Below the pieces are notes generated by a model. That model made no database searches, was not told where the DNA came from, and saw nothing but the letters and a program-made list of their open reading frames with translations. 55,561 nt of DNA from the IMG/VR virus record IMGVR_UViG_3300030333_004442, positions 1 to 55,561 of that record, one strand, 5' to 3'. The DNA is from a virus. Of this stretch, positions 3,450-47,000 are shown in pieces. Every line of letters begins with the position of its first letter. Within the stretch, counting starts at the first letter, position 1. Both the position numbers and the translations under genes were made by a program.

Positions 3450-3451
3450 AA

Positions 3452-3925: not shown

Positions 3926-3926
3926 C

Positions 3927-4824: not shown

Positions 4825-4852
4825 TGCCTCTTCCTTTTTAAATTTAAATTTA

Positions 4853-4867: not shown

Positions 4868-4872
4868 CCGAG

Positions 4873-20240: not shown

Positions 20241-20255
20241 GAATGTATCCCCCTT

Positions 20256-28757: not shown

Positions 28758-29857
28758 CAGCAATCATCTCCATATGGACCGTTTGAAGTGTCACCAGAAC
28801 GTGTTGAGCTTGAATACAAGCCGCTGGTGCCTGTGCGCTCTTCACAGTCTAAGAAGCCATTGTCAAGACCACCACACTTGTTGGGGTCGGCAGCTACACC
28901 GGAATCACACAAGACTTGAGGATTGATTTCTCTATCTACACGGATATCTAAATAGTGTTCAACAAAAGTTGGGTCATAATTGTATATCTGCGGTGGAGCA
29001 GGGTCATCAACCAACACCCCGTTGACAATGTTGCTCCATCGCCTTCCAAATTTTAGTGGAATAAGTTTTTCAATTTTGCTCTGCTCAGAAGCAGCCAGAC
29101 CGGGGGTGGAAACCTTACCGGTCATGTCCACTTCTTCGATGAGAAAGACTTCAATATCAAAATTTTCTTTCAAGCAATCAGTGTTCTGTTCGTCAATCTC
29201 CAACAAGAGATGGTCGGAGGTCACTTGAATATACGAACCGTCCTCATATTGTTGAGTTGCCATCTGTAGCTCACCAGAAGTACCAGTGGAGCCAAAGCTG
29301 CCTGCCTGATGTATACCGGGCGTTTCATTACCTTCTGGGTCTGGAGGTGCCTCTGTTTTTATTTCTGTCCAACACTTCACGTTTGCAACATTTAATTGTG
29401 GAATCATTAAAGTGGGCTGTGCGCCCTGCTGGTAACGAAAGGCACCTGAGAAGCTTCCGCGCAAAGTCGTAGCCGACCACGATGGGGCATAAGTTGTTCT
29501 CGCAGTAGATTTGCCTAACGGCGCAGAGAGTGCATAGTGCTTCTCTGGTGTCTGCTGTGCCTTCTTGTCGCGGAGCCCAGTACGGTTGTTGCGAATAAGC
29601 TCGTTTATTTCAGTGACATTCGATTCTCTCCCAGAGAAAACATATTGTGGTTTAGGCGAAGGAGTCTCAGTCAAAATCCTATCTTGAGCATAGTTTTGTT
29701 CCTCTGCGGAGTCGCCAGTGTATTGCCAATCATAAGTAATGTCATCATCAAAGAAAGAATAATACACGGGTGCAAATTCGCCCTTAGAAAGCAAATGTTT
29801 CCCATACTGGGTCAACTCGATGTGCATTACTTCTTCTTTCTTATCAAAAAATGACAT
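28757..29857 (-). CDS. Virion structural protein, 366 aa, with shared N-terminal module
   Basis: The ATG at 29857 overlaps the giant gene's stop by one base (TAATG) and has GAGGAT just upstream. The N-terminus (FFDKKEEVMHIELTQYGKHL, LSKGEFAPVYYSFFDDDITY) is a conserved opening known from structural proteins of marine T4-like phages and matches that of the 319-residue protein. After a charged helix (INELIRNNRTGLRDKKAQQT) comes a beta region with several cysteines (NTDCLKENFDIEVFLIEEVD) and a C-terminus with five cysteines in the last 45 residues, ending GDDC. No enzymatic motif is evident. It follows the giant protein and may be an assembly partner, by inference. Confidence 0.65.
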   Translation of the reverse strand: MSFFDKKEEVMHIELTQYGKHLLSKGEFAPVYYSFFDDDITYDWQYTGDSAEEQNYAQDRILTETPSPKPQYVFSGRESNVTEINELIRNNRTGLRDKKAQQTPEKHYALSAPLGKSTARTTYAPSWSATTLRGSFSGAFRYQQGAQPTLMIPQLNVANVKCWTEIKTEAPPDPEGNETPGIHQAGSFGSTGTSGELQMATQQYEDGSYIQVTSDHLLLEIDEQNTDCLKENFDIEVFLIEEVDMTGKVSTPGLAASEQSKIEKLIPLKFGRRWSNIVNGVLVDDPAPPQIYNYDPTFVEHYLDIRVDREINPQVLCDSGVAADPNKCGGLDNGFLDCEERTGTSGLYSSSTRSGDTSNGPYGDDC

Positions 29858-32800
29858 TATCTATCCTCTTCTGTACCGAACGTGAATGTTGCCGGGGCTC
29901 GGCTCATGTCCTGTACGCTACTCTCCTTCACTGCACCAATCTGTCTCCGAACCTCTGAGCTAGAAATCTCATCTTGTGATGAGGTTACCTGTGGGACTTG
30001 AAGCAATTGATTTTCAAAAATATCAAGCCCAGCCTCGACCTGAATCAACTCCAGCATGGTGAAGTAATCATATGGCCAATTGTAACTATATTTGGGTGGC
30101 GTTTTACCCATTTCAAAATCAAAGGAAAATCTTCCATCGTCTGTACCGCGAGCGGTCGCCTCAAAATAATCCTCTTTCGCACGCTTCTTGACCTTGAATG
30201 TCATCCATCGCACATGCCTTGGCAAATTATTTTCTTCAAAAAAGTCAACGGGGCTCAAGTCATGGATGAGCGTCGATGAGTCATGTTCTGCGGTCACTGC
30301 AATCTTCGGTGGCAAGCCTTGCCAAATGTCTGCCAAGTCTTGCTTATCGAACCGATGATTGAATTCAAAGATGTACATGACGAACGGGTCTTCTGATGCC
30401 TCCATTGGGTATCGAACGAAATCGAATTTGGGTGGAAGGTTATATTTCTTCATGAGCTTAATCATCTTACTGATAGAAGTCTCTTGAATTTCCTGATTTG
30501 AGGTGACTCCAAACCACTGCATCGGTTTTACTGCCGGGTCGCCTGCTTCAATATTGTTCTTCTGCATGTTAAAAAGGTCTTTATTAATTTTAAAGAAATG
30601 TCTGCCGTCCACAACAATGGTTTCTGCTGTAGTGTCTGATTCTTTGTCAACAAACGGAATCATCACCACCGCTTCGGAGATTTCTTTTGATGGGGCGATT
30701 TCACCAACCTTCTGTTTTTGGGGCTGGAAGCCGCACACATCAATAAGCGAACCGTGGGCGAGAGAGTGAGACTTTGTTGCAGATGAGATTGTCGATTCTT
30801 CAATTGTCACAAACACACCTTGTGCTTCTGCCGGTATCACACCGTATGAAGACCAGATTCCCATGCCGCTGTTCTCACCTTCTGTAGTGGTATCTTTAAT
30901 CACATACCCATTCTCTGACTGGGCTATCTGCAAATCCGAATCTGACCATGCGGGTGTGAGGGCAAGCTGGGCTCGACCACTGGGTAACCCGAAGGCTCCC
31001 GCTTCAAAGTCCGACAATGCTGGCACAGCCATCGTAGAGAGTGCCGGTGCAGTGTAAAAATTCAAAATCGGGCACTCCCATTTCGTTCCGATGGTCCACA
31101 CATCGCCACTGCTGCCCTGTGAATCGGTGGCTGTCAGTGGCACAAACTTTTGTAATGACTCGTCAAGGTCATCTCGCAAGTTAGCAAGTTGAGCACGGTA
31201 TTCAATTTGTTTGATACTCGTCTTTCCGAAGAGATTCATGGATGCCGAGATTGTTGTCCGTGCCTTCCATGCCGGGGAACTCGAAATTTCGCGACTGTTA
31301 TACCAGATATCGCCATTGTCCTCTTGGGCACACTTGACAAATCGCTGCCATGCTTCAGGGGAGATGTTCGTGACTTTAGCACCAGCGAAGATTTCCTCCA
31401 ACGTAAACTTCTTTGTTATAGATGGTGTAAAAGAAATTCTTGCCGTTTGTTTACCATAAAGATAGGGAGGAACATACGGTGCTTGGGCTGGGTCGCGAAG
31501 CATCTGAGCCTCTATACTGTTCAAGCCTGCTTCGTCGTTAATCCTATAGTCGTCCAAACCTTTCCACTGGAAGGCTGGACCATAATATCTGCCCTCCATA
31601 GTGAACACGCTCGTACCTGTCTCGCCAAACGCAATCTTGTTTGGTCGCCCGAGCGCGTAAGAATCTGAATATGGGCTGGCAAGTGTGGTAAAGTTTTCTG
31701 ACTGATTCATGGAAACATTCATGTAATAGGTCTTGCCAGCTTCCATCACCTTAAACTGCGATTCTGGTTTTGATGCGAATGAGACGAGCTTGCTATCCTT
31801 CAAGAAGAAATTTGGAACCTCTGCCAAGAAGTTGTGCATAGCCATTTCAAAACGAGGGTCGCCGTTGTTCCCTTGATATTCAAAATAGGGATAACAATAA
31901 TTTCGCCAGTTGGATGCATATGCCTTACCCGTGTCGCCGCCGCCTGATTCATTACCAGCACCAACATAATATTCTGGGACCATTAGATAAATTTGGTGAG
32001 GCTTTGGTGTCACACGGATTTGATTAATATCTTCTGCGGTGTATCCACCGTACAATGTGAATGGTCCTTGTTGTGGTTTTGCTGATTCTTCCATGACCGC
32101 TACGTTGCTTCCCGTTCTCTCTGAAAATGTGCTCTCAACGCCCAAAGTCTCATCTTGCGTAAAAAGGTAAGACGCATCATTTTGAAAGGATTGAAGCCCT
32201 CCATCCCACGCGAATCCACCGGATATCGACTGAATGCCGCCACTAACAGTATCGTATCTCCTTTGGTCATTGTAGTTACCCTTCATGGTTACACCGTCTG
32301 CACTGACTTGTCTAATTCCCAACTCTGTGTCAACGCTGTATTTAGCAGAGCCCTTCCAACCCCAACCATCAATCCACTCACACAGCGCCAAGGTTCCAAG
32401 ATGGCGTGTAATCGACACAGCGCAAACATCGCCAAGGATGGCACCATCGACCATATCGGAAGCCTTCTCTGCACCACCAGTAAAGAAGCACCAAGGCTCG
32501 ACACTTCCAGCACGCATCCAATAAGATGGTGCGTCCTGCCCAGCCCCGCCAGTGTAGGGATACTCATAATCGGATAGTGAATTGCCCGTGTCGTCCGTAT
32601 TTTGGAAAGGATTGACCAAATGAAGCACCTTCCAGTTGAGGGGGATGTGCTTGACGGCTTCGGAATGAAGGCTCTGATGAATCCAGTGCTGAGGGCAACC
32701 TGCTGGTCCCTCTTCAGAATAAATATCTTCCTCATTTTCAATAAGCATCGCTGAATTAATAAACCCGCCACCACCAGCTTTTGCCATACTGGTGTGATTT

Positions 32801-35800
32801 GTATTCCCAGTATCATAGGGGCTGTAATCGTCGGTGCTGAAGCTGTCCTCGCTACAAGATGATTCAGAGGCGACACCCTCCCAAGGCTTCATTCCCAATT
32901 CAGTGATGGAGTTCGCAGCAAACCCGAAGCTGTTGCTGTCCGATGCTACCTCAGTGTGACTTAATTCCACTTGAGCCAAATCCAACCTCATCTTTGGCGG
33001 TCCAACATAAACAAGGCGAATTCGCCACGTCCCACTGTGTTGCCTTCCAACTCTGGGTGGTGCCATTGTATCGGGCTTGAACAACTCGGGCTTGTTCCAC
33101 AGATTATTCACATAGCTTGCGCCGTGGTCCTTGTAGGGGTCAAGGGTGTCGTCGGTGGTTGTGGGCGCGAGGTCATCTTTGGAAATACCAAATATCTCTG
33201 GGTAAACCGCTGGGAAAATACGAGCAACGGCGTCACCATTCCATTTGCGGTCGTGGTCCGTGCGGTCGCTCCATTTATATGAAATAAGTTGACCGGGGAT
33301 GGCAACAAAATGAATATCGGGACGTTCATGATTGATGTGGTAACACAGCTTCACGGCTATCTCTTCATTCATCTCATCAAGAGTGATTGGGTCGGCATTG
33401 GAGTACGGGGGGATGGACCACTGAGCATCGCTCTCGCCTGCGAAAGTCGATGAACCATCTTGATTAAAGCTGGGCATCCCGAAACCCTTTGGTGGTCTTT
33501 GGAAATCCACATTAACGTCCCAGTCCGAGCCGCCTATTTCCCTGTCTCTATCTCCGATGGTGACTGAATGTGAACGAATAGTGTAGTTGCCTGCCCACTC
33601 ATCATTGCCGTCTGGGTATTCGCTATCGTCGTTTTGCGCGGCAAACAACGCCTCTGGTTGCTTAAAAGTAATTTCGACACCTTCACAGTCCCATCCAGAA
33701 ATCTCAAGGTCAACATATTTAAAATCACCCTCGTCAATAGTGGAGCCCAGCGACTCCAAATTATCGCTCGACTTTGGCAGAACAGAGTCCAAAGACACCA
33801 AGCCCTCAAACGGAATTCTAATATCTGGCTCTGCACGAATAATGTATCCGTTGGCAGCATCAGCACAAGCCCCGCCTTCGCCCTGTTCGACACCTTCGGA
33901 CAAACATGCAAAAAACTTCGGCTGGGCTTTGTATAGCTTCTTTAGTTGATTTGCCTGCTGTTGGACAATATATTCCTCAGCTTCTGCGGCGTCGGCATCA
34001 CTTGTGAATTTTTCATACTCTGCAAGTAGACCTTCGTCGGGGCTGTATGGGTTGGCACGCGGACTGAACCAATTTGGAACAATAGACGAAAGCTGAACCT
34101 CTGGTCCTCTGTCGCCAAGGAGAGCATCCGTCAGCATCTTGGCGTGCCACGCCTCTGATGATAAACCGTGTATATCTTCGTTGTAAAATGGCAAAGTACA
34201 TTGTGAGTTGGGATAAACAGGCTCAAGCCCTGTGGCGTTTGTAAATGCTGGCCAATCTACTGCGATACCTGCTTTAATGGAATTGTAAAGAATACCCGGC
34301 GCGAAGAATGGTTGCATAGCTGCCTGCATTGCCTGTTCCTCAAGAAGAATGGTTGTATCAGCACCTGTGATGCTGGCTTTCATTTTCTGAGTAAACAATT
34401 CTGCAAGCTGAAGCGTTCTGTCCTGTGGGTAGAATCCACGGTACGGCATCAGCTTCTTGAGTGCGTTCACCTTGAAGCGAAGCCTGCGGCGAGCGGTGGG
34501 AGAAATCCCATCGTGGTCTTCCACAATCGCATCATAAAATTGAATTGTGTCTGTGTGGACATACGAATTGAAAAACTCATCATCCCAGTCCTCACACATC
34601 TCGCCAATGTTGATGGTCGGATGAACACCAAGACGGTGCCAGACAGCGAGTTTGCATGTCGAACACGATGCTTCAGTAGTCAACCCAATTTGCGTCTGCG
34701 AATAACTGATAGCTCCGGTGGCGGTTTTCACCGTTCCCTCTCTCATGTTTGAAACAGTAAGAACTCCCGTGGGGGCATTATTTCCCCACTCTTCTTGGGC
34801 AACACTGAGCTTGGTATAGCCACCAAGGACTTCACCATTCAAGTACCCTTCAAGCAGGTTTTTAGGTTGCGGGCGAATCCAATTAATATCAGCTTTGCTA
34901 AGAACACCAGCCCACATTGAAAATTCCATAAGCTCGCCATTAAAATACCAATACTCATCTTCCCTGCGCTTTGTTGCCAATATACGATTGTCTGTCACAT
35001 CAGCAAACACAGCCTTTCCAATCTTGTAATCGTAATTGTACATGAAGTTGTTATTGTCTGCGCTGAAATCGTTGCCACCCCAACCATATTCTTCACCCCA
35101 TGCAGCAGTCTTGCCTACGGGCACAACACTGTAAACCGTCTTTCTATAGGTGGTGTTTGTCAACGCAGAGCGGTGGATTCCATAAAGGACTTCCGAGTAA
35201 AGCTTGTTGGTCGTTTCGTCGCCATCTGGTCGGGTCTTGGAGTTTGTCAAAGTCATTTTAATTTTAGGTGGCTTGCTGCCAATCGCCGGAAGAATCTGTA
35301 AAACGACATTATTCCACTCACCCTCTGGTAAGGTCGCTGGAACCCACTTGTCGTTGTTATCGTCGCTATCACCTTGCGTATCCCGCCTGAAGAAGTGATA
35401 AATGTTCTTTTCATCCCAGTCAAAGCTTGGATGCTTGTCTATTGCATTTACGCCAAGCATGGTTTCGCGACGGTGGTCGTCGCCAGCTTGATTCATGAAG
35501 AATGTTAATCCCATGCCAAATGGATAATCGTCTCTAAGTTCTACTGGAGCAGGGAAGTTTGCGTACACGCCCCAAGCGCCCTCGGCAGAGTGAATATCTC
35601 TACGCCAGTTACCGGGTGACTTTTGGTTCTTCGGATTCACCTCAAAGTCAACCCTTTGACTTTCTTGGTTGAAGTGTGCGTTGATATATGAACCGAACAC
35701 ATAAAGCCCAACAGGAACATTGTCATAAACGGCTTGGTCAGTAGAACACCCCGTGACCTCTGGTTTAGCCCATACGGAAATTGTGATAGGCGTGCCCTTG

Positions 35801-38800
35801 GTATTGGTGGTGGCATCTGAAGCATACAACTCCAATCTGGCTTGGGAAGTCGCGCCGCTTTCAGAAGCTGCATCAGAAGGCACCCTGAGCGTATCATAGT
35901 GTCTTTTTTCCGTCATCTTCCCGAAAGGGCTAACTCCATATATGTTTGTATCATTCGCGCTCGTCGTTGTGTATTTATCCCATAAGGTTATTTGACCATG
36001 CATATACTCATCAGTTGCACCATTCATATTAAACTTCATGCACGCCAAAGCAGGGTCGGCTGTTGACTTGTCGTTGGAAAATGGTGTTATTGATTTCCAC
36101 TCGGAGAAGCTGTTTGCTTCTCTGTAGACAGGGGGCAAATCAGGGTTGCCAGTCCCGCTGGTGGTGGCGGTCAAATCGGGGTCATCATAACCAAAAATGC
36201 CGTCAGCGTCGGAGTCACCACCCTTATAGGAAGTGGTCGCGCCATCCTCGACCTCCGTCAACAACTCTTCTCCCGCAGCGAACCAACTGTGACGACCCGT
36301 TCCGTCGTCGGCTGTGCCTTGACCCCACGATACGCGACCGTCCCAAGGAGAGGACGGAAGAATCTGAGCATAGCCGCCTTCTCCCATTACTGGAATCAGC
36401 GTTGCATTGCAGTTTTCGATAGACATGTTACCACCAACATAAATCGGATTCTGGAACACATAATCAGTATATGCGCTTGGAGAATTAAAAGTCCCGCGAC
36501 CTTCGCTATTTGAAAACGCATTGTTCATTGTTTTAATTCTATTTTGTAGATATTCAAATCCGGTCGTGGGGTCATCAGAATCTACACTGAGGTCTTGCCA
36601 GCCAGAATACATCTCATCAGAGTGGGGGAACTCGCTAACTACATTCTCATATGTGCCATCAGGCGAATAAACCTTCTCACTGGGATATGTGACCTTGCCA
36701 CTCCACGCAGTTTCGTGCGTAGCATAGTGTGGCGCAACAGTGTTGTAACTGGCACCGTGTAGTGAAAGAAAGTTAAAATTCTTGGTGCGGAAATCGCCGC
36801 CATCAATCATTAAATACTTGTCCATATGTTCCGAGACACGGAACTCGGCAACGACACCATAGTTTTGTGCCATGCAGCGTGTCTCCAAGCTGAAATCAAT
36901 ATATTTGTCATACCAAGGATTCTTACCAGCCATCTCGTTGGTCTTGTAGCGCCAAGCGCCTTCTCGCTTTTCTTCTCCATGAGGATTGTAATACAGTTGC
37001 ACAACCACTTCCGGCGAAATGCATCTAGGGGATATTTCGGCGCGGGTTGCCGTTTCGATATTCACAGTGTGGTCGCTGACCACAATATCGTCGTACCCAC
37101 CACCTCCGTCGAGCGTAGCATCTGCGCCCATTTTAGGCTCGCCACCATAGAAGCCAACCTTCGTGCCGCCAACCACTTCAGACCTATAGCCATCAAAAGT
37201 CAAGCCAATTACTTCCGCATACTTTTGTGACGAATTGCTGTTCCTGTTATAATGTACCTCTGCTTTAGGACCGCCGCCACCGGTAGCCATCATATCGGGT
37301 ATCTGTAGATATTCTCTTATGCTGCCTGTAAAGCCCATGCCGATGCCACCATCAAAGTGGCTTTGTAGCGAGTAATCAAACTTCCCCAGCGCAGCTTGTA
37401 TTAGATTCGTACCGAGCTTGTCCTCAAGGTTTGAAACATCAAGATTGGCATAATTTACATAATCGGTTTGTGGCGTGAATTCACAGCTTCGATTTATAAT
37501 CCACGACATATAAGTTGGCCAACCAACATACTGAAGGTCACCTTTACATGTCCACTCCGCAGTCGCACCGGTCGCGTCCTCTCTGTCGTACACAAAGTTA
37601 TCCATTGCAAAAATACTGCGGGATTGGTTCCAGCTATCCAAAGAGGTTCCATCCTCTTCAAGCAAATAACTTGGCTTGTAAGCTGAAGTGTAGCCAATGG
37701 CGTTAACGGTTGTTGATATCGGTCCTTTAATTCTTTCAAAAACATTGTTCTTCCAGAAAATTCTCAATTGACCTGTCGGTATAGAAGAAATATCTTCTGC
37801 CGCAACATCATCCCATGAGGCGCGTGCCCTAGTTTTAAGGAGTCCAACATTTCTATTCTTCGGAAAAATATATTCTTTGTAGAAGAGCCCCACGAAATCC
37901 AGTTCAGGCTGGGTGGCGTTGAATGGTGAATATTTATCAAACAAAACATCGTAATTTTGAGATGTATCTTTTATATCGAACCCCGTCTTGTAGGACAGCT
38001 TGGGGTTCGCAAATGTCTTTAAGTTATTGCTATAGCTATGAACGGCAGTGACACCAATGTTATCAGTCTTCTCTGAAAGCATGTGCTGCATTGGCATGTT
38101 CCAAGTTGCTGCCGGTTCAATATATTTGGTATGATTGTCTGAGCGTCTGTCGTTATATCTCCAAGAACGCACCTTCTCATCGGCACCACCTTGGAAATAA
38201 ACGGTGATTTTTTTATTACCGCTATCATCCGCTATCACCAAGCCGGTCGAGGAAGCCTCAATCGGGAGTGAATGGTCGTTCGCCGTCGTCTTGATGGACG
38301 CGGCTTCTGTGAAGTAAAGGGCAGAAGAATCTGTCAGATTCCCGCTACTGGTCGCAACATCGGCAGCGGGCAAAGTTACTACAATTGAATTAAGGTTGAC
38401 AAGAGCGCCGGTTTCAACTGTTTCGATGACAACAATGTTCGACCCCTCGGTGGAGGACGCTGAAATCTTCGATGTGCCATCAATTTTGCCCAGAACATTA
38501 TAGACTTCATCAAGCTCATTAATCTTGCCTGCAATATAGTTGGCTATCGCTTGCACCGCACCATCTCCCGAGAACTGAGCAACGGGCACGGTCACCGTCC
38601 ATTCCGCAGCAGTGTCTGTCTCTTCAATCAAGGGGTCCGCTGTAATTGTGAAATCTGCTGATGGGACCGAGTTAACATAAATCTTTATCGCACCGTTAAT
38701 AGCTTCCTTCTTGTTTTCATACAGCTTGTTGCTGTCGGGGGTGTTTTGGATAGTGATGACATTTCGCTGCCTTTGTTGTCTGACAATCGGACTGTATCCA

Positions 38801-41800
38801 TTTTGAAGCATCTTCCAGCTTGCACCCTGATATGGACCATTGCGATTCAACAGCAGGGCGTTTAGTGTAGCATTGCCCGCCGCTGGCTTCTGTGTGCCCG
38901 TTCCATATTCAGCGAGTGGTCGATTTAATTCACAAGATGGGCATGAGGCTCCAATAAGATTGTTGGTCCAATCCACTGGGTCCACAACAATATAATTTCC
39001 ATAAACAAAGTCAACATCAACATTGACTGTGGTTGAGGTGCCGCCGCTGTTATATGTGATGCCGAGGGAGCCAGAAGTGAGTAGCCCCGGTGACGAAACT
39101 TCCTGACCAGCACCGGCACCGGTCAAAATCCAGTCAAGGCTTCCGCTAACTCCAATGGTCGCATTAGGATAGTCTGTAATATATCCAGACAACCTTGGGT
39201 GAAAAATTAATTTATCTGTCGAATCGCCGTCGCCGTCATTATTCCAAGGAAAAACTGTGGGAGTATAAGCAGCGCGTTCTTCATCGTCGTACTCCTGTAG
39301 CGCAGGTTGACCAGAAATATTAAAATGTACAGCAGACGAAGTAATCCAATGGTATTGCCAATCACTCTGTGGAATCTGGTGGCTAATATAAAAGTTGTCA
39401 TAGCGCCGTCTGGTTTCAACCTGCGTCGGGGAATGGAGATACATTCTTGTCAAAGGATTGCGATTGTTCTTGTGCCATGCGCCGACATTGGCAGTATTGC
39501 CGCCGAAGTCATTAGAGACGCCACCGATTGCATCTGACTCAGTTCCATGAATATAATCTTCTCTATATCCAAACTGCGCTGTGTGTTCCTTGTGCCAGAA
39601 ATTAAGATGATTTCTAACGCGAAGGTTTCTGTAATTCAACGAGTTGTATGCAGAGAATTCCTCAGCTTGAATATCAAGCGCACCTCTTGAAAGAGTTGCC
39701 GGTTCGCCGGGAGCGGAAAATCTTTCCACAAAAACATGCTCGGTTCTTCCGAAAGATTCATCTGCACTGTTCTTCGTCCTATCTGGTAGAGAGAAGTCAT
39801 ACAATCCAGTAATATAAGTTGACACAATGCTGTCTGGTGTGTATTCGGGATTCCTGACGTGCCATCGGTTATTCTGAGAGCGACCAGAGGTCTGAACCAC
39901 TTCGTAATCTCTCGTATAGTTTCCAAGCTTGGGTGTGCCGGTGTAAGTCGTATAGTTGTCTTCATTGACAGCAGTATTGATGTTTGCAATATTGAATGCT
40001 CGTTTCGCTGTGCCGTCGCGTGTCCAGCGTGCTGCTGGATGGTCGGTGTTAACATCGTGTGGGTGCTTGATTGTGTTACCGCCCGTGACCTTATAAAGTT
40101 CCGCACGGGTTGCCTCGGCATTGAGTGCGCCATCAAGGAATTTATTTAAATCAATATGCCTATGCTGGTTTCCACCTACCCACTCGGATGCGAACACACC
40201 CTGCATGGGAACTTCGTGGTCCTGACCATAAGAATCATGGTGGACGTTTCGCCAAGTAGGGCTTGCATCATTTGGGTATGCTCCGTATCGAGGGTGTGTA
40301 ATCAAAGAGCCCTTGAGCGGAGTAGTGGTACTTAAAACGGTATCAGCAAGAGTCACGATATGTGCCCGCCGCTTCTCACCTATGGGACCGTCTTGAATAG
40401 TGTATTCGTCTTGACAAATCGGGGCATCATCTTGCAGAGAAGTGATTTGAATATTGTGACCCATGCGCGTCGATGAGCGCATCATGTCATTCGGACTGGC
40501 TGGTGTTGCGTTAGCAAAGTTAGGTCCACCAGCGATTATCGGTGACTGGTCCAAGTTAAGTTTGTAGGGTCTTGACAAGCGGCGAGTCGCATAGGTGCTG
40601 CCCTCGTAATGCTTGGCAGTCTTGATATCATAAAGGGTCGGCTCGCCTTGTTCGACAAACCCGCCCGTACTAACCTCGACCATCTTGTTTTGACCAAGAA
40701 CATCACGGACTTTTGATTTGCGAATCGTTTCTCTTTCGATATCAACTGCTGTTGCTGGTAAGAAACCAAGGTCAGTGCGAATTGCACGCTCGTTCCACCA
40801 CAAACAATGGTCGGGGGAGTCGGAGCCTATACCGCCTGTAAAGTCAGTTGCCGTGACAGTCGTAACACCAGACATGTCAATGGCAGTGTTACCAGAAGCA
40901 CTAAGACCATGTTGTGTAAGGGTCATAGCACCGCCACTAGTTTCGGTGGCAGTCATGGCAAGGTCAGATGCATTGATGGCTGCTCTAATTCTATCTCCCA
41001 CGGATGCGGCGTGACCAGACGCACCACTAACCCCAATGATAACATTGTCGCCATCCTTGGTGCCATCTACAGTGGTGACGCCAGTTTTAAAAACAAAAGT
41101 GACAGCCAGCCCAGCGGCATCTGTAAGGGTAAAAGTTTCATTGTTGCTCGGATTGCCCGTGGTCGTAATTGTTCCAGTAGCTTTTGTCATACTGGTGATG
41201 GGGGCGTGTCCATGCTCCCAATCATATGTCATCTCCCGAATACCACGCAAGGTTGCTGCTGGCGGGTCTTGTTTCATTTCAAGAGTAGGAAACTTCGTCC
41301 AATACTTGCTGCGCTCAAGAAGGTGATTCTCGACCATATTACGCATTGATTCAGAGAAGTTTCCAGATGCAGGAATCAATTGTTGCATCATCAGCCCGAC
41401 AGACGAATCAAGCCACTTATAGAAAGCTACGAATTTCTCAAACGAGGGAACATTCTCCACTCGCTCATAGAACAGGCTTCTAAATTTTTGTAACGTCTTG
41501 TATTCCATGCGATAACGATGGACAGGCTGACCTATCAAATCATTAAACTCAAGAACACTTGCAAAGAGAGTAAGCATCTCTTGCGAGATGACCTGATACA
41601 TACTCTTCTCAATCGCCCAGAAATGATTAATTGGCTTGGCGTTCTTGCCAAACGTATCATCATCTTGAGTGCGAATCTCAACCATATCGTCACCGCTCAA
41701 CACCTCTGGCAAACGATGGATTGCTGAATATGTATACTCTCTGTTAATGACATTTGTGTCGTTAGCACAGGATGCAGCGTCAAACGATGCAACGCCAGTG

Positions 41801-44800
41801 TGACGATAGCCAATAAGATTAGTGAACCATCCATAACGCGCTTCGGTAATGTATGAAGCGCCGCCGCCAGAAACATCATCAATAGTAAACAAACCAGAAG
41901 CGTCGGACTGGGTATTGTTAGAGAAGTCCCAATGAAGCGCCAAAGTATCCTTCCTTGGTACGCGAATATCAGAGACTGTCCCGTCGCTCAACTCTGAAAA
42001 GAAAGCGTATGCATCGTCATTAGGATACAGCCGTCCAGTATTGGTAACATCGGTTGAGTGAATTTTAATTTCCTGAGACTCTAACTTGTCGAACCAATAC
42101 ATCAAGTCTGTAACCTTAACGTCTGAGTATAGGGTGCCCGCATTTACAGCAAAATTATCACGGTAATGACCAATGTAGAATATCTTCGGTGTTGCAATCA
42201 TTGCGCGAGCTTTCGCAACCGCAGTAGCTCCATTATAAAATGCGTTCAGCTTGAACTCATTTAGCACTTCACCAAGCTGCAACTGGACGCCATAGAAATC
42301 TATACTATATTTTGATGCAGTAGCGCCCGTAACATAATCACCGAGTGCGGCGTCAGTCGGAACAATTCTGACCGCGAAATTCCAAGTTGAGTTGTCCCAC
42401 ACATCTTTGTACTCGTCAGAAATTATTTCATGGTCACCGTCCGCGTCGGTATAAATTAATTTGAACCTTGCCGAAGTAACATCTCGCGTCGAAGAACTAT
42501 ATTCGTTCGCGCCCATAATCGCTTGAATCTGCATCCGACCAATTTGATTTGTGCCTGTTTGGTCATAAAGCTCATACGCACCTGTAAAGTTAGTTGCCGT
42601 GACAGTTGTGACGCCAGACATATCAACAGCGGTGTGTCCGGCAGTACCGAAGCCATCTTGCGTAAGCCTCACCACCCCACCAGACACTTCAGTTGCGGTC
42701 ATCGCAACGTCAGATGCGTTGATGGCAGCGATTATCCTCTCTCCCACAGCCGCAGCGGAGCCTGCTGCGCCACTGGTTCCAATGATTACGTTATCCCCGT
42801 CCTTGGTGCCGTCTGCGGTGGCGACACCAGTTTTGAAAACAAACGTGACAGCTAACCCAGCAGCATCTGTAAGGACAAATGTTTCATCATTTGAAGGGTT
42901 GCCTGTGGTGGTAATTGTTGCAGTAGCACAAACATGGTTTGCCTCCTTGCAACCAAAGAGAGAGATTGTATTAAACCCTTTATGATAAAATGATGGATGG
43001 TCTGTGTCAAGCTGGAGCGGAAAAATAACTTGGGCAGTCATAGTTGTTGATAACAATTTTGCTTGGTCGGTCGTAACGCCAGCCACATAGCCGCGCTCAT
43101 CTGAACTTGAAGCATATACATCTTTAGAAAATGCTACACCGTCCTTACGGTCAACATGATTAAAATCAATATAATTTTTCTTGACCGATGAGTTAGTGCG
43201 TCTGCCGTCCAGAGTATAGTCTACCCCGTCAGCATAAAGATTAAGCTTGACAAGCTCATCATCAACCCCGAAACAACGGATTAAATTTCGGAATGATTTC
43301 TCTGTTCCCTTTGTCTTATAAATGTATGAAATGTTGTTATAGATGTTTTGATAGATTACGTTTTTAATATCTTGAATCCGATTCTCAAACATATCTTGTT
43401 CGCCGCGTGACACAATTTCTTCAAGCGATGATGCCTCGCTAAAAATATCAACCACATCGAAGCCGACCGAACGGAGCAACTGTTTTGCAAAAAAGACAGG
43501 TTTTGTCTGTGAATCACCAAGGTCAAAATATTTTGAGTCACGAATCTCTCCAAGCATATCAATTTGACTATGGATGGTGTCAAGATAACTTGCCAAAGTC
43601 TGAACAAGAGTTTTGATGACCATGCTGTCATTGTCTTCTTCCAAAATCCACCCCGGCATCGTATGATAAAAGGATGCGTTATTTTGGTTATCCCACATCG
43701 AACCAGACAACATCAAATTTGTTTTAAGGGTTTCAATTTCAGTATGAGTCGCATACATGGTGGGGTCTTTAGGTTCAGTGACGCCCATCTCAATAACCTT
43801 TGTGGACTCATCCATTGCTGATGTTGTTACTCGGACGGCAGTAGAGTAGTTACTGATTGTTCCATTAGAAATCCGACCAGAATAATCTAAGCACTGTGCA
43901 TCTGTTGTAGTCGGCGTGGTGTCGTCGTAAACCCCCTCGTTAAACTTAAAATAAACCCCCAAGTCAACATTAATGCCAGCGTCTTTGTCGTACTTTGTAT
44001 TGTCAGTGTTTGTACCACCAAAGCAGGGAGTGAACCAATAGCGCCCAATCTCTTTTGCGTTCCGAGTCTTTTTCCAATATCTAAACTCGTCCAGATACAA
44101 GCCTTTTGCACCGCCATCGCCGTCAGTAAGAGCAGCAGGACTGCTATTCAAAGGCTTCGTTCTCAAAGCGTTGATGTTGGCTACGAACCCCTCTTGTGAA
44201 ATAGTTGAGGTAATCTTATTACCTGCTGTAACAGTTGTAGAATATGTACCATCAATAAAGAGGTCAATTTTAATTCCCGAATCTGTATTGGAAACGGCAA
44301 AGGCATAGTGATGCCAGTTCTGCATCCACGTTGCACCACTCGTTGCACCCATCGTATCCAAGGTTGCAGTTGGAATCGTTAGCCCAGCCTCTTCGACGCC
44401 CTCTGCGGCATTACCGTATTTGTATGTAACATGGAAGTGCGTGCCAGCAGACGACGGTGCGCCGGGTACTGAGATTGTAAATCGGGTGTAATTTGCGGCA
44501 GTGTGTGCTGCGCCGTTCCACAAGTCAAACAAACACACCGATTGATTAGTCGCAAGGAGCGCGTCTCTTTTAGCCCAAAACTCAATCGTGTTTCCGTAGG
44601 ATGGGTTGATGCCAAGATTTGATTCTCGGAACATTTCATCGTCCCAAATATTAGCTCGACCACCTTTAGGCGGGAACTGCTTGCTCAACTCATACTCATC
44701 ATCTTCCTGAACATCTGGGTCTTTGTGAGGACCACCTTTAATAGTGATGTGCTGGCCAGTATTGGCAGCATAACGATACCAAACCCCACTTCCCGTGTCT

Positions 44801-45171
44801 GAGTATGTTGTGGCGGCTGTCACCGATGAATTTAATTTAACATGCCCAACGGCACTGGGAAAATGATAATCAAGAATATATTCATCAAGCCCAGACGCTT
44901 CGTTGCGCCATTCCATCTTTTCAGTCTCAGAGCCGTCGTAGGGATAGGACTTTAAGATGTGGTTTATAGCATCTTCATAATATTTCTCAGCAGAACCATA
45001 GCGGGCAAAATTCTCAGGCGCAGAATAATCAATCCGTGGAATCAGCTTGTTGTTTTTATCTGTGTTCGCGGTGATGAGGTCGTAGGATTCCACCTCGTCG
45101 TCAAGCTTGTCTAATTCTGCCTTGCCGACGACTTTATTTGACGTTTTACCAAATAAATCTTTGATGCTCAT
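29857..45171 (-). CDS. Giant virion protein, 5104 aa, baseplate wedge/tail-associated
   Basis: A single uninterrupted 15.3-kb gene, far longer than any T4 protein. Residues ~140-400 look like a LamG/concanavalin-like jelly roll (NTIEFWAKRDALLATNQSV, NWHHYAFAV, LYLDEFRYWKK). Near 610-640, YIYKTKGTEKSFRNLIRCFG recalls the tail protein I / gp7-like wedge motif. A second jelly roll, at ~700-1040, is interrupted at ~749-865 by an inserted beta domain; a near copy of that domain lies at ~1331-1447 and a divergent one at ~2134-2294. Another LamG-like unit lies at ~3130-3430 (ITISVWAKPE, EWNNVVLQI). The remainder is beta-rich with no catalytic motif seen. The position directly after gp6 and the 608-residue gene corresponds to gp7/gp8 in T4. 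Probably a baseplate-peripheral protein with glycan-binding domains, inferred. Confidence 0.75.
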   Translation of the reverse strand: MSIKDLFGKTSNKVVGKAELDKLDDEVESYDLITANTDKNNKLIPRIDYSAPENFARYGSAEKYYEDAINHILKSYPYDGSETEKMEWRNEASGLDEYILDYHFPSAVGHVKLNSSVTAATTYSDTGSGVWYRYAANTGQHITIKGGPHKDPDVQEDDEYELSKQFPPKGGRANIWDDEMFRESNLGINPSYGNTIEFWAKRDALLATNQSVCLFDLWNGAAHTAANYTRFTISVPGAPSSAGTHFHVTYKYGNAAEGVEEAGLTIPTATLDTMGATSGATWMQNWHHYAFAVSNTDSGIKIDLFIDGTYSTTVTAGNKITSTISQEGFVANINALRTKPLNSSPAALTDGDGGAKGLYLDEFRYWKKTRNAKEIGRYWFTPCFGGTNTDNTKYDKDAGINVDLGVYFKFNEGVYDDTTPTTTDAQCLDYSGRISNGTISNYSTAVRVTTSAMDESTKVIEMGVTEPKDPTMYATHTEIETLKTNLMLSGSMWDNQNNASFYHTMPGWILEEDNDSMVIKTLVQTLASYLDTIHSQIDMLGEIRDSKYFDLGDSQTKPVFFAKQLLRSVGFDVVDIFSEASSLEEIVSRGEQDMFENRIQDIKNVIYQNIYNNISYIYKTKGTEKSFRNLIRCFGVDDELVKLNLYADGVDYTLDGRRTNSSVKKNYIDFNHVDRKDGVAFSKDVYASSSDERGYVAGVTTDQAKLLSTTMTAQVIFPLQLDTDHPSFYHKGFNTISLFGCKEANHVCATATITTTGNPSNDETFVLTDAAGLAVTFVFKTGVATADGTKDGDNVIIGTSGAAGSAAAVGERIIAAINASDVAMTATEVSGGVVRLTQDGFGTAGHTAVDMSGVTTVTATNFTGAYELYDQTGTNQIGRMQIQAIMGANEYSSSTRDVTSARFKLIYTDADGDHEIISDEYKDVWDNSTWNFAVRIVPTDAALGDYVTGATASKYSIDFYGVQLQLGEVLNEFKLNAFYNGATAVAKARAMIATPKIFYIGHYRDNFAVNAGTLYSDVKVTDLMYWFDKLESQEIKIHSTDVTNTGRLYPNDDAYAFFSELSDGTVSDIRVPRKDTLALHWDFSNNTQSDASGLFTIDDVSGGGASYITEARYGWFTNLIGYRHTGVASFDAASCANDTNVINREYTYSAIHRLPEVLSGDDMVEIRTQDDDTFGKNAKPINHFWAIEKSMYQVISQEMLTLFASVLEFNDLIGQPVHRYRMEYKTLQKFRSLFYERVENVPSFEKFVAFYKWLDSSVGLMMQQLIPASGNFSESMRNMVENHLLERSKYWTKFPTLEMKQDPPAATLRGIREMTYDWEHGHAPITSMTKATGTITTTGNPSNNETFTLTDAAGLAVTFVFKTGVTTVDGTKDGDNVIIGVSGASGHAASVGDRIRAAINASDLAMTATETSGGAMTLTQHGLSASGNTAIDMSGVTTVTATDFTGGIGSDSPDHCLWWNERAIRTDLGFLPATAVDIERETIRKSKVRDVLGQNKMVEVSTGGFVEQGEPTLYDIKTAKHYEGSTYATRRLSRPYKLNLDQSPIIAGGPNFANATPASPNDMMRSSTRMGHNIQITSLQDDAPICQDEYTIQDGPIGEKRRAHIVTLADTVLSTTTPLKGSLITHPRYGAYPNDASPTWRNVHHDSYGQDHEVPMQGVFASEWVGGNQHRHIDLNKFLDGALNAEATRAELYKVTGGNTIKHPHDVNTDHPAARWTRDGTAKRAFNIANINTAVNEDNYTTYTGTPKLGNYTRDYEVVQTSGRSQNNRWHVRNPEYTPDSIVSTYITGLYDFSLPDRTKNSADESFGRTEHVFVERFSAPGEPATLSRGALDIQAEEFSAYNSLNYRNLRVRNHLNFWHKEHTAQFGYREDYIHGTESDAIGGVSNDFGGNTANVGAWHKNNRNPLTRMYLHSPTQVETRRRYDNFYISHQIPQSDWQYHWITSSAVHFNISGQPALQEYDDEERAAYTPTVFPWNNDGDGDSTDKLIFHPRLSGYITDYPNATIGVSGSLDWILTGAGAGQEVSSPGLLTSGSLGITYNSGGTSTTVNVDVDFVYGNYIVVDPVDWTNNLIGASCPSCELNRPLAEYGTGTQKPAAGNATLNALLLNRNGPYQGASWKMLQNGYSPIVRQQRQRNVITIQNTPDSNKLYENKKEAINGAIKIYVNSVPSADFTITADPLIEETDTAAEWTVTVPVAQFSGDGAVQAIANYIAGKINELDEVYNVLGKIDGTSKISASSTEGSNIVVIETVETGALVNLNSIVVTLPAADVATSSGNLTDSSALYFTEAASIKTTANDHSLPIEASSTGLVIADDSGNKKITVYFQGGADEKVRSWRYNDRRSDNHTKYIEPAATWNMPMQHMLSEKTDNIGVTAVHSYSNNLKTFANPKLSYKTGFDIKDTSQNYDVLFDKYSPFNATQPELDFVGLFYKEYIFPKNRNVGLLKTRARASWDDVAAEDISSIPTGQLRIFWKNNVFERIKGPISTTVNAIGYTSAYKPSYLLEEDGTSLDSWNQSRSIFAMDNFVYDREDATGATAEWTCKGDLQYVGWPTYMSWIINRSCEFTPQTDYVNYANLDVSNLEDKLGTNLIQAALGKFDYSLQSHFDGGIGMGFTGSIREYLQIPDMMATGGGGPKAEVHYNRNSNSSQKYAEVIGLTFDGYRSEVVGGTKVGFYGGEPKMGADATLDGGGGYDDIVVSDHTVNIETATRAEISPRCISPEVVVQLYYNPHGEEKREGAWRYKTNEMAGKNPWYDKYIDFSLETRCMAQNYGVVAEFRVSEHMDKYLMIDGGDFRTKNFNFLSLHGASYNTVAPHYATHETAWSGKVTYPSEKVYSPDGTYENVVSEFPHSDEMYSGWQDLSVDSDDPTTGFEYLQNRIKTMNNAFSNSEGRGTFNSPSAYTDYVFQNPIYVGGNMSIENCNATLIPVMGEGGYAQILPSSPWDGRVSWGQGTADDGTGRHSWFAAGEELLTEVEDGATTSYKGGDSDADGIFGYDDPDLTATTSGTGNPDLPPVYREANSFSEWKSITPFSNDKSTADPALACMKFNMNGATDEYMHGQITLWDKYTTTSANDTNIYGVSPFGKMTEKRHYDTLRVPSDAASESGATSQARLELYASDATTNTKGTPITISVWAKPEVTGCSTDQAVYDNVPVGLYVFGSYINAHFNQESQRVDFEVNPKNQKSPGNWRRDIHSAEGAWGVYANFPAPVELRDDYPFGMGLTFFMNQAGDDHRRETMLGVNAIDKHPSFDWDEKNIYHFFRRDTQGDSDDNNDKWVPATLPEGEWNNVVLQILPAIGSKPPKIKMTLTNSKTRPDGDETTNKLYSEVLYGIHRSALTNTTYRKTVYSVVPVGKTAAWGEEYGWGGNDFSADNNNFMYNYDYKIGKAVFADVTDNRILATKRREDEYWYFNGELMEFSMWAGVLSKADINWIRPQPKNLLEGYLNGEVLGGYTKLSVAQEEWGNNAPTGVLTVSNMREGTVKTATGAISYSQTQIGLTTEASCSTCKLAVWHRLGVHPTINIGEMCEDWDDEFFNSYVHTDTIQFYDAIVEDHDGISPTARRRLRFKVNALKKLMPYRGFYPQDRTLQLAELFTQKMKASITGADTTILLEEQAMQAAMQPFFAPGILYNSIKAGIAVDWPAFTNATGLEPVYPNSQCTLPFYNEDIHGLSSEAWHAKMLTDALLGDRGPEVQLSSIVPNWFSPRANPYSPDEGLLAEYEKFTSDADAAEAEEYIVQQQANQLKKLYKAQPKFFACLSEGVEQGEGGACADAANGYIIRAEPDIRIPFEGLVSLDSVLPKSSDNLESLGSTIDEGDFKYVDLEISGWDCEGVEITFKQPEALFAAQNDDSEYPDGNDEWAGNYTIRSHSVTIGDRDREIGGSDWDVNVDFQRPPKGFGMPSFNQDGSSTFAGESDAQWSIPPYSNADPITLDEMNEEIAVKLCYHINHERPDIHFVAIPGQLISYKWSDRTDHDRKWNGDAVARIFPAVYPEIFGISKDDLAPTTTDDTLDPYKDHGASYVNNLWNKPELFKPDTMAPPRVGRQHSGTWRIRLVYVGPPKMRLDLAQVELSHTEVASDSNSFGFAANSITELGMKPWEGVASESSCSEDSFSTDDYSPYDTGNTNHTSMAKAGGGGFINSAMLIENEEDIYSEEGPAGCPQHWIHQSLHSEAVKHIPLNWKVLHLVNPFQNTDDTGNSLSDYEYPYTGGAGQDAPSYWMRAGSVEPWCFFTGGAEKASDMVDGAILGDVCAVSITRHLGTLALCEWIDGWGWKGSAKYSVDTELGIRQVSADGVTMKGNYNDQRRYDTVSGGIQSISGGFAWDGGLQSFQNDASYLFTQDETLGVESTFSERTGSNVAVMEESAKPQQGPFTLYGGYTAEDINQIRVTPKPHQIYLMVPEYYVGAGNESGGGDTGKAYASNWRNYCYPYFEYQGNNGDPRFEMAMHNFLAEVPNFFLKDSKLVSFASKPESQFKVMEAGKTYYMNVSMNQSENFTTLASPYSDSYALGRPNKIAFGETGTSVFTMEGRYYGPAFQWKGLDDYRINDEAGLNSIEAQMLRDPAQAPYVPPYLYGKQTARISFTPSITKKFTLEEIFAGAKVTNISPEAWQRFVKCAQEDNGDIWYNSREISSSPAWKARTTISASMNLFGKTSIKQIEYRAQLANLRDDLDESLQKFVPLTATDSQGSSGDVWTIGTKWECPILNFYTAPALSTMAVPALSDFEAGAFGLPSGRAQLALTPAWSDSDLQIAQSENGYVIKDTTTEGENSGMGIWSSYGVIPAEAQGVFVTIEESTISSATKSHSLAHGSLIDVCGFQPQKQKVGEIAPSKEISEAVVMIPFVDKESDTTAETIVVDGRHFFKINKDLFNMQKNNIEAGDPAVKPMQWFGVTSNQEIQETSISKMIKLMKKYNLPPKFDFVRYPMEASEDPFVMYIFEFNHRFDKQDLADIWQGLPPKIAVTAEHDSSTLIHDLSPVDFFEENNLPRHVRWMTFKVKKRAKEDYFEATARGTDDGRFSFDFEMGKTPPKYSYNWPYDYFTMLELIQVEAGLDIFENQLLQVPQVTSSQDEISSSEVRRQIGAVKESSVQDMSRAPATFTFGTEEDR
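38290..38770 (-). repeat. Divergent third copy of the inserted beta domain in the giant gene
   Basis: The encoded segment (IKIYVNSVPSADFTI, then IANYIAGKINELDEVYNVLG and ISASSTEGSNIVVIE) has the same order of strands and central helix as the two closely related copies at 40831-41181 and 42578-42927, but little direct identity. Assigned by pattern only. Confidence 0.35.
40831..41181 (-). repeat. Inserted beta domain, copy A, in the giant gene
   Basis: About 117 codons with the pattern TITTTGNPSN, ETFTLTDAAGLAVTFVFKTG, VIIGVSGASG, then a helix RIRAAINASD, LTQ and DMSGVTTVTATDFTGG. Copy B at 42578-42927 has almost the same protein sequence and high DNA similarity, so the pair arose by a fairly recent internal duplication or exchange. 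Domains of this kind occur scattered through structural proteins of marine phages. Confidence 0.8.
42578..42927 (-). repeat. Inserted beta domain, copy B, in the giant gene
   Basis: Near-identical to copy A (TITTTGNPSN, FVLTDAAGLAVTFVFKTGVA, IIGTSGAAGSAAAVGERI, VDMSGVTTVTATNFTG). It interrupts a concanavalin-like fold: the strand ISLFGCKEANHVC lies before it and QTGTNQIGRMQIQAI after it, and these would join smoothly if the insert were removed. Confidence 0.8.
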
Positions 45172-45173
45172 TA

Positions 45174-47000
45174 TCAGTCTACCCTAAACTTAAAAACTTC
45201 TTCTTGTTCAGTGATGACTCCATCAATCGAAGTCAAGAACCGAATCCCATACATATAGCCAGCCTCCAGCAACGACATATCGAAATCAAAATAGCTTCCT
45301 TCGCCATCATAAGAGAGTTTGGTGTGGTCATTGCTTGTAGTGGCGGTCCCTCTGCCATAATCAAACAAGACTTCATCGTCTACAACTCTAAAGATTTTGA
45401 AGTAAACATTGTCAACGATTTTGTTCTGCAAAGACCTCCTAGCTACTGTATAAATAGTTGGCGACCAATCTTTTAATCGTGTGTAAACCCGAAAACGTGG
45501 CGACTCACTTCTTGTATAAGAGTTTTTAAGGTTAGTGATGTTGAAAATATATCTATCTTTCTTTTCTGATGTGGTAAGGCTTCTCTGATTGACGGAGATT
45601 GACCCAGTGTGAAGCACTTCCCATGTCGATTCATCTGCACCACCAGTTGCTGCCGAATACCACTTGTCATACACAATCGAGCCCGTCGTATCGACAACAC
45701 AAGAAACTTTGTATACACCAGTGGAGGGGTTCGTCGCAGCGAGTGCAGTCGCAGAATTGAAGCTATCGTTAGGGTCTTTCACTGACGCCAACTGAGTGTA
45801 ATCTGGGTCTGTATAAAATCTAACATACAATTCCTCACCAGATGGGAATGTATAATTGCTCCTGCTGCCCCCAACAGAATTATAAAGAAAGAGGTTGTTC
45901 GTGTTCTGGGCATTTGTAAACATCTTACTTTCTGCATGAAAATTAGACCTCTGGTCTTGTTCCGAGGCATCCCAACGAGCTTCGATGCATGGTCGTTTAA
46001 AGAAATACTGAGAAGTGCGGGCAAAGAATTTCTTAGTATAGAATGATTTGCCAACATTCTCGTTTGTAATTTTAATAATGAACCCTTTGTGTGAAGCCTG
46101 CATATCGCTTAATGAGCGAAGCGAGCCGCTACTCCAAATAACACTTTCCATATGCGATGTAATGTCGAGCAGGATATCTTCCTCGCCTGTAGTAAAATCC
46201 TGCGATACAACTGCACTGCCGCCATAATCACCCGTGTTGATGCCCATTGCTGTGCCCCATTCCGTATAATCAAGACCACTAGTCATGTAATAACTCGCTG
46301 TCTGAAAGGTGCCAGAATCTGCACTGATAGAATAGGGGTAGTTTCCGACTGCGCCCGCTGATGCCGCAGTCAATGTGACAACACCAGAAGAATTCGTAGC
46401 AGACACTTTGTCCGTAGCTGCCTCGATTGCGTCTTTAATAGCCTCGCCCACATTCGTTTTAGTTGGCGAACCGGGGGCGGTAGCGGTGATGCTGGTATCT
46501 CCTATCTTTATGGAAATTTCTTCTGCCGCATTTGGAACAGTTTGAACCGTAATCTTACCAGTCCCTGTGCCGCCTGCTGTATCATTACGATATTTCCATG
46601 ATGCCGCACCCTCATCTGTATACTCGCCCATGTCGAGTCCACTTCCCTCGGTCCATGTGCTGGAGAGCGTATGAACGCTTAGATTAAAATTACGAGGCAG
46701 AGTTTCCGCATGAACAGCGTTGAAAAGCCGCAAAATATATTTTGGCTTATTGGACGCATCCGGTGTTGGTAAATCACCAGCGACAAGCGATGCTCGGAGC
46801 GTTTCCATATCAAACCTAATCAAGATGCGGGCTATCTCTTTAGAGTCGTTCCCAGTTGAGGTGACCTGACCATGAAGGACAAACACCTCAAGAATGTCAG
46901 CAACACCCATGTTGGCTTTTACGCCGCGCTCTGTCAAGCCTTCTTTATACGCATTTGTAATTGTTGTATCGGCTTCCGCTGCCAACCTGTAGATGCTCAT
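45174..47000 (-). CDS. Baseplate/tail structural protein, 608 aa
   Basis: The ATG at 47000 overlaps the gp6 stop by one base (TAATG). The N-terminal ~150 residues (IYRLAAEADTTITNAYKEGL, ARILIRFDMETLRASLVAGD, LPRNFNLSVHTLSSTW) look like a carbohydrate-binding-like beta sandwich of the kind that starts with a 'DTTI' strand. An inserted beta domain follows at ~145-245 (GKITVQTVPN, ISIKIGDTSITAT, VGEAIKDAIEAA), related in pattern to those in the giant gene. The C-terminal part is a beta domain with FRVYTRLKDWSPTIYTVARR and GYMYGIRFLTSIDGV, ending in EEVFKFRVD. Position after gp6 suggests a wedge or wedge-attached component. Confidence 0.65.
   Translation of the reverse strand: MSIYRLAAEADTTITNAYKEGLTERGVKANMGVADILEVFVLHGQVTSTGNDSKEIARILIRFDMETLRASLVAGDLPTPDASNKPKYILRLFNAVHAETLPRNFNLSVHTLSSTWTEGSGLDMGEYTDEGAASWKYRNDTAGGTGTGKITVQTVPNAAEEISIKIGDTSITATAPGSPTKTNVGEAIKDAIEAATDKVSATNSSGVVTLTAASAGAVGNYPYSISADSGTFQTASYYMTSGLDYTEWGTAMGINTGDYGGSAVVSQDFTTGEEDILLDITSHMESVIWSSGSLRSLSDMQASHKGFIIKITNENVGKSFYTKKFFARTSQYFFKRPCIEARWDASEQDQRSNFHAESKMFTNAQNTNNLFLYNSVGGSRSNYTFPSGEELYVRFYTDPDYTQLASVKDPNDSFNSATALAATNPSTGVYKVSCVVDTTGSIVYDKWYSAATGGADESTWEVLHTGSISVNQRSLTTSEKKDRYIFNITNLKNSYTRSESPRFRVYTRLKDWSPTIYTVARRSLQNKIVDNVYFKIFRVVDDEVLFDYGRGTATTSNDHTKLSYDGEGSYFDFDMSLLEAGYMYGIRFLTSIDGVITEQEEVFKFRVD
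46275..46575 (-). repeat. Inserted beta domain in the 608-aa gene
   Basis: The segment GKITVQTVPNAAEEISIKIG to the VTLTAASAGAVGNYPYSI strand repeats the strand-helix-strand order of the domain found three times in the giant gene, with the GEAIKDAIEA helix in the place of ERIIAAINAS. It sits between a WTEGSGLDMGEYTDEGAASW block and SGLDYTEWGTAMG, which would otherwise be contiguous. Confidence 0.45.

What the first reader, a model, noticed from the sequence alone, without database searches (positions are those of the whole stretch)
29857..45171. 5104-residue single-gene virion protein next to the baseplate genes
At 15.3 kb this one gene takes more than a quarter of the window and is several times the length of the longest T4 protein. 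It combines LamG-like jelly rolls at both ends of its first two-thirds, a motif like tail protein I/gp7, and inserted beta domains. The giant may have replaced several wedge and fibre genes (gp7, gp8, gp9-11 equivalents are otherwise not seen here) by fusion, which would be a new way to build a baseplate rim.
Basis: partly seen in the sequence, partly recalled or inferred. Interest (0 to 1): 0.7.

Follow-up and report, generated by a model that had tools for sequence, protein, structure and literature searches.

The report
Giant gp7-type phage baseplate wedge protein
One 5,104-residue phage gene is an extremely enlarged version of a known tail-baseplate building block, joined to a second large module of unknown fold that many related aquatic phages also carry, sometimes as a separate neighbouring gene.

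Summary
The 5,104-aa ORF is real: intact, under purifying selection, and syntenic (gp25–gp6–X–giant) in about 80 IMG/VR loci. It has two parts. Residues 1–1325 are homologous to the ~1.3-kaa genes that follow gp25–gp6 in Flavobacterium phage immuto and Microcystis phage Mel-JY01. They carry a LamG/pentraxin domain and a helical 'KGT' domain that matches tail protein I models (TIGR02242; no hit reaches the curated cut-off). That makes it, most likely, the gp7/gpI-type wedge protein. Residues ~1640–5104 have a conserved ~1,000-aa core, predicted as one compact fold with no PDB match, interrupted by lineage-specific inserts. Most relatives have N and C parts fused (about 100 ORFs, mostly 2.6–4.4 kaa), but at least four lineages have two adjacent genes; the fused state looks ancestral. 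The proposed gp7+gp8+gp9–11 fusion is not supported: no T4 gp8–gp11 resemblance was found in the C-part, and isolated relatives have the N-part alone in the regions read. Giant gp7-position proteins are already known in cyanophages (S-PM2, 3,048 aa; PHROG models of 4,179 and 6,136 positions). Verdict: a new, extreme variant of a known kind. The C-part, found in more than 560 loci, is the open question.

The parts
29857..45171 (-). Giant gene, 5,104 aa
   Evidence: purifying selection along the length; synteny
41197..45171 (-). N-part (residues 1-1325): gp7/gpI-type wedge portion; homologous to the 1,265-1,400 aa genes after gp25-gp6 in immuto, Mel-JY01 and LR756508
   Evidence: HMM E about 1e-18; hhalign 1e-12
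43777..44853 (-). LamG/pentraxin-like (concanavalin-fold) domain 1, residues ~107-465
   Evidence: AF2 model of homologue L024; Foldseek and VIA Z 21 to the PAPP-A/pentraxin LamG domain
43207..43743 (-). Helical tail-protein-I-like domain, residues ~477-655
   Evidence: TIGR02242 matched by 23 of 41 members, best 3e-4; TIGR01634 by 2; genome-wide TIGR02242 hits fall in this gene in relatives
43264..43341 (-). KGT motif (YNNISYIYKTKGTEKSFRNLIRCFGV), residues 611-636
   Evidence: A3 alignment; matched by TIGR02242; aligned to P2 gpI KGT (not significant alone)
41728..43203 (-). Second beta-sandwich (LamG-like), residues ~657-1148, carrying repeat insert 1
   Evidence: AF2 model; neurexin LNS-pair hits span both sandwiches
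42568..42936 (-). Inserted repeat domain copy 1, residues 746-868
   Evidence: 79% aa and 75% nt identical to copy 2; absent from most relatives
41197..41727 (-). Second conserved helical block ending the N-part, residues ~1149-1325 (VENHLLERSKY)
   Evidence: conserved in ingroup and isolates
40828..41190 (-). Inserted repeat domain copy 2 at the N-part/C-part junction, residues 1328-1448
   Evidence: sits where the most common gene split lies in relatives
29860..40248 (-). C-part, residues ~1642-5104: conserved core blocks plus variable inserts
   Evidence: separate gene in some relatives
38737..40248 (-). C-part conserved block 1642-2145
   Evidence: coverage by relatives
37672..38184 (-). 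C-part conserved block 2330-2500
   Evidence: inside the modelled core (pTM 0.82)
36727..36954 (-). C-part conserved block 2740-2815
34822..36024 (-). Insert, possible third LamG-like domain, residues ~3050-3450
   Evidence: hhalign to LamG1 P 0.003 only; inference from motif
34222..34584 (-). C-part conserved block 3530-3650 (LMPYRGFYPQ...FAPGILYNSIKAGIAV)
   Evidence: best-conserved scan pattern
29860..31884 (-). C-part conserved block 4430-5104
47000..48844 (-). gp6-type wedge protein
   Evidence: phrog_219 8.8e-19, phrog_6 1.5e-17
48869..49291 (-). gp25-type wedge protein
   Evidence: phrog_261 4.8e-19
45174..47000 (-). X608, between gp6 and the giant in the window and in the IMG/VR relatives
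   Evidence: insert matching phrog_165 tail sheath 3e-6

Best explanation
The giant is the gp7/gpI-type baseplate wedge protein of a large clade of aquatic T4-like myoviruses, hugely extended. Its helical KGT domain would dock with the gp6 dimer and gp25 in each of six wedges (inferred from homology and gene order). The LamG-type domains and other beta inserts would project outwards. The C-part, a conserved ~1,000-aa core of unknown fold with variable inserts, would form the wedge periphery that carries fibres or touches host glycans (inferred). N and C parts are separable modules: some relatives encode them as two adjacent genes. Shown here: homology, synteny, modularity, fold of the first LamG domain. 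Not shown: presence in virions, stoichiometry, contacts.
For: Gene order p2035-gp25-gp6-X-giant-p366-p1183 is kept in about 80 loci. The N-part HMM finds, in immuto, Mel-JY01 and LR756508, exactly the large gene shortly after gp25-gp6, E about 1e-18. TIGR02242 'phage tail protein domain' matches 23 of 41 members and its sister tail_P2_I matches 2. A whole-genome scan with TIGR02242 hits P2 gpI, the S-PM2 gp7-position giant, immuto gp162 and the giants of L020 and L021, one hit per genome. LamG/pentraxin fold Z 21. C-part core modelled with pTM 0.82. Split genes in relatives. The literature describes (gp6)2-gp7 as the conserved wedge, gp7 orthologues from 242 to 1,032 aa with fibre-binding parts (PMC10457771), and the gp7-like part as a hotspot of re-engineering (PMC8894135).
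Against: No significant sequence match to T4 gp7 or P2 gpI. TIGR02242 scores stay below the curated cut-off, and the window's own copy scores only E 0.045 when the domain is scanned alone and does not pass in the genome-wide scan. The helical domain has low pLDDT, so its fold was not compared. A 608-aa gene stands between gp6 and the giant, unlike T4 or P2. No virion proteomics was seen for this clade.
Confidence: 0.78

Rival explanations
1. Fusion of several T4-type wedge proteins (gp7+gp8+gp9-11) into one chain that forms a new kind of baseplate rim.
For: No separate gp7 or gp8-gp11 found by profile in window or relatives; the giant corresponds to two adjacent genes in some relatives.
Against: C-part has no profile similarity to T4 gp7, gp8, gp9, gp10 or gp11 and no PDB fold match; isolates with the N-part alone show no C-part nearby and equally lack gp8-gp11 profile hits; S-PM2 keeps a separate gp8 beside its giant.
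Confidence: 0.06
2. Primarily an adsorption protein (giant tail fibre or glycan-binding adhesin) that only happens to sit beside the wedge genes.
For: LamG/pentraxin domain; variable inserts; expanded beta domains.
Against: The most conserved part is helical and matches tail protein I models; strict synteny with gp25-gp6; the N-part is far better conserved than the inserts, unlike a typical fibre.
Confidence: 0.12
3. The fused gene arose recently in the window's lineage by joining two neighbouring genes.
For: Two-gene versions exist.
Against: In the tree the window, freshwater and other early groups are all fused, and the two-gene versions are nested in four places (4 changes, 2 forced by starred branches), so splits look derived; outgroup rooting is weak.
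Confidence: 0.1

Closest known systems
T4 gp7 / P2 gpI / Vibrio phage XM1 gp17 wedge proteins
   Same: Gene position after gp25-gp6 and a helical KGT domain resembling tail protein I models
   Different: 5,104 aa against 1,032, 176 and 242; LamG and other beta inserts; long C-part of unknown fold; no direct sequence match to T4 gp7 or P2 gpI
S-PM2p084 (3,048 aa 'virion structural protein' of cyanophage S-PM2) and PHROGs 4406, 2885, 701
   Same: Giant single protein directly after gp25-gp6; weak TIGR02242 match
   Different: No profile match to the N-part of this clade beyond chance; separate gp8 present
Flavobacterium phage immuto QQO91841.1 (1,265 aa) and Microcystis phage Mel-JY01 WWT39511.1 (1,336 aa)
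   Same: Homologous N-part in the same gene order
   Different: A quarter of the length; no C-part homologue found within the regions read
Alg12/Pvc12/Afp12 of extracellular contractile injection systems (literature)
   Same: gp7-like part is a hotspot for added peripheral domains (PMC8894135)
   Different: [quoted passage not shown] here gp6 is separate

Membership tests
gp7/gpI-type baseplate wedge protein | Gene in the cluster of the gp25-gp6 wedge genes of a contractile-tailed phage | tested here: met
   one gene (X608) intervenes
gp7/gpI-type baseplate wedge protein | Tail-protein-I helical domain with KGT motif | tested here: inconclusive
   TIGR02242 in 23 of 41 homologues, best 3e-4, and genome-wide hits in gp7-position genes, but all below the curated cut-off
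gp7/gpI-type baseplate wedge protein | Core-bundle/trifurcation fold shared with gp7, gpI, TssG | tested here: inconclusive
   Helical region modelled with pLDDT about 30-45
gp7/gpI-type baseplate wedge protein | One copy per wedge, binding a gp6 dimer | not testable with these tools
   Needs cryo-EM or reconstitution
T4 gp7 family proper (phrog_964) | Match to the T4 gp7 profile | tested here: not met
   No hit in window or relatives, while T4 scores E 0
Fusion with T4 gp8/gp9/gp10/gp11 | Sequence or fold similarity of C-part to gp8-gp11 | tested here: inconclusive
   Profile comparisons negative; fold searches list no such match, which does not exclude it
LamG/pentraxin (concanavalin-like) domain | Concanavalin-like jelly-roll fold | tested here: met
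   Domain 1, Z 21.3, 214 aligned residues, rmsd 3.0, on homologue L024

The most novel reading that the evidence does not exclude
The C-part is a previously undescribed second baseplate wedge/rim component with a new large fold, functionally standing in for T4's peripheral wedge proteins. It is ancestrally fused to the gp7-type protein in a widespread aquatic phage clade and repeatedly re-split into its own gene.
Probability: 0.35. Interest if true: 0.55.

Novelty: new variant of a known kind. Interest (0 to 1): 0.36.

Why it matters
It shows how far a conserved wedge subunit can be expanded (about 5x T4 gp7) while keeping its gene position. It also provides a natural series of lengths and gene splits that marks the module boundaries. 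The C-part core is common in aquatic virus data (more than 560 loci from one scan), has no structural or functional description that I could find, and is a tractable target: short stand-alone versions of about 1,290-1,340 aa exist.

Tried and rejected
Pfam and PHROG scans of the giant in pieces gave nothing significant. Profile search of PDB sequences gave only chance Rab-33B hits. The first phage-collection tblastn with the N-terminal 1,000 aa found nothing, so isolates had to be reached through gp6. P2 gpI relatives in IMG/VR were near-identical and useless for a profile. The PDB fold searches of the C-part list no T4 baseplate chain; I treat that as inconclusive. BFVD returned only unnamed or 'uncultured marine virus' relatives of the same protein. 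Host search in bacterial genomes gave two stray low-coverage MAG contigs (Flavobacteriales, Poseidoniales), probably mis-binned phage, so no host is claimed. Outgroup rooting by immuto, Mel-JY01 and LR756508 sits on a branch of length 3 with support near 50 and is not relied on. Some apparent splits (L051, L019, L221, L022) look like frameshifts or assembly breaks and were not counted as splits. In one search, the C ORF of L190 (1,503 aa) and the second ORFs of L051 and L221 were listed as fused because of minor N-part hits; they are not full fused genes. L035/L037 (2,705 aa plus a 1,265-aa ORF, split inside the C-part) were labelled fused, so they do not count among the four split places there.

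Full report
What is there. The window is a 55,561-bp linear IMG/VR virus record. ORF 29857-45171 (minus) encodes 5,104 aa. Upstream of it in the direction of transcription lie a 2,035-aa gene, gp25, gp6 and a 608-aa gene. Downstream lie 366-, 1,183-, 879-, 319-, 414- and 453-aa genes, then a RuvC-like nuclease, a primase, SbcCD-like, terminase, portal and prohead protease genes. This is a T4-like myovirus. The long frame is a true gene: against L002 and L003, third codon positions differ by 0.48-0.71 and second positions by 0.06-0.43 in every bin, up to residue 4800.

How common it is. A scan with residues 500-700 found 481 related stretches in IMG/VR, and one with the C-part profile found at least 562. 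In about 80 loci the order p2035-gp25-gp6-X-giant-p366-p1183 is kept as far as the contigs reach. About 100 complete one-gene versions run mostly from 2.6 to 4.0 kaa, with a few open frames to 4.3-4.4 kaa. The window's 5,104 aa is the longest seen here. It is therefore an extreme of a common gene and not a singular object.

Anatomy. Coverage by relatives gives a very conserved N-part (1-1325, interrupted at 746-868), conserved C-part blocks (1642-2145, 2330-2500, 2740-2815, 3530-3650, 4430-5060) and long poorly conserved inserts (about 2150-2330, 2550-2730, 2820-3500, 3660-4400). The compact homologue L024 (2,658 aa) was modelled in two pieces. The N-part shows a confident LamG/pentraxin domain at L024 107-388 (VIA Z 21.3, rmsd 3.0, 214 residues), a second beta sandwich at 575-930, and low-confidence helical parts. 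The C-part core (pTM 0.82, mean pLDDT 72) has no PDB match better than E 0.1 or VIA Z 5.7; in BFVD it matches only viral relatives of itself. Two inserts at 746-868 and 1328-1448 are 79% identical duplicates, with a weak relative in the neighbouring 608-aa protein.

Why gp7/gpI type. The N-part profile finds, in Flavobacterium phage immuto, Microcystis phage Mel-JY01 and the uncultured phage LR756508, exactly one gene each, the 1,265-1,400-aa gene shortly after gp25-gp6 (colinear hhalign). Scanning the helical domain against all NCBIfam models, TIGR02242 (phage tail protein domain) is matched by 23 of 41 members and its sister tail_P2_I by 2; nothing else recurs. A scan of whole genomes with TIGR02242 gives a single hit per positive genome: P2 gpI, S-PM2's 3,048-aa gp7-position giant, immuto gp162, and the giants of L020 and L021. 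No hit passes the curated cut-off, T4 gp7 itself is not hit, and the window's copy does not pass in that scan, so this is strong circumstantial evidence and not proof of family membership.

Fusion or fission. In L029, L031, L032, L189, L196, L200 and L205 (split after ~1,230-1,247 aa), L015-L017 (1,693), L190, L203 and L204 (1,808-1,822) and L254 (2,538) the N-part and C-part are two adjacent genes. Three checked junctions of the first group have intergenic gaps of 2-7 nt, and the L015-L017 junction has 21 nt. On an N-part tree of 105 rows the split state appears in four separate places, nested among fused rows (midpoint root, at least two changes forced by well-supported branches). The simplest reading is an old fused gene that has been split several times. 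Whether the fused gene itself arose from a lone N-part gene, as in immuto and Mel-JY01 where no C-part was found nearby, is plausible but not shown.

The C-part profile shows nothing against T4 gp8, gp10, gp11, gp9 or gp7. Profiles for T4 gp7, gp8, gp10 and gp11 find nothing in the window or in relatives up to 183 kb, and gp9's finds only one marginal fragment. gp53-like fragments are weakly seen in some relatives. The same absences hold in immuto and Mel-JY01, in which no C-part was detected nearby, so the missing genes are not explained by fusion.

Precedent. S-PM2 carries a 3,048-aa virion protein in the gp7 position, with a separate gp8 and a further 2.7-kaa protein. PHROGs matched by it reach 4,179 positions ('baseplate wedge subunit') and 6,136 positions ('virion structural protein'). 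[quoted passage not shown] Giant size at this position is therefore known. The clade's C-part and its fused/split alternation appear undescribed in what I could search.

Noticed in passing
window 1-1850 (-): A protein cut by the window's end (about 600 aa or more, from MANQKILGADL...) with imperfect ~52-aa repeats (156-nt tandem unit); fibre- or decoration-like.
   Followed up: no
window 14279-17428 (-): One 1,049-aa ORF matches both SbcD-like (1-361) and SbcC-like (208-1047) PHROG models, i.e. the two nuclease subunits appear fused; LR756508 has two ORFs.
   Followed up: partly
window 45174-47000 (-): 608-aa protein between gp6 and the giant in all relatives read; residues 139-220 match a tail sheath PHROG (3e-6) and weakly the giant's duplicated insert, suggesting a domain shared among tail proteins.
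   Followed up: partly
window 18879-21500 (-) and L083:28990-37936: The 414- and 453-aa proteins are paralogues (C-terminal halves), and Mel-JY01 has five tandem relatives of the 414-aa protein.
   Followed up: partly
window 49346-55453 (-): 2,035-aa protein upstream of gp25, conserved at 1.3-1.7 kaa in relatives, with no family match; possibly a hub or spike component.
   Followed up: no
L173, L174: Relatives of the giant's helical domain on short very-low-coverage contigs in Flavobacteriales and Poseidoniales MAGs; probably mis-binned phage, so no host inference.
   Followed up: no
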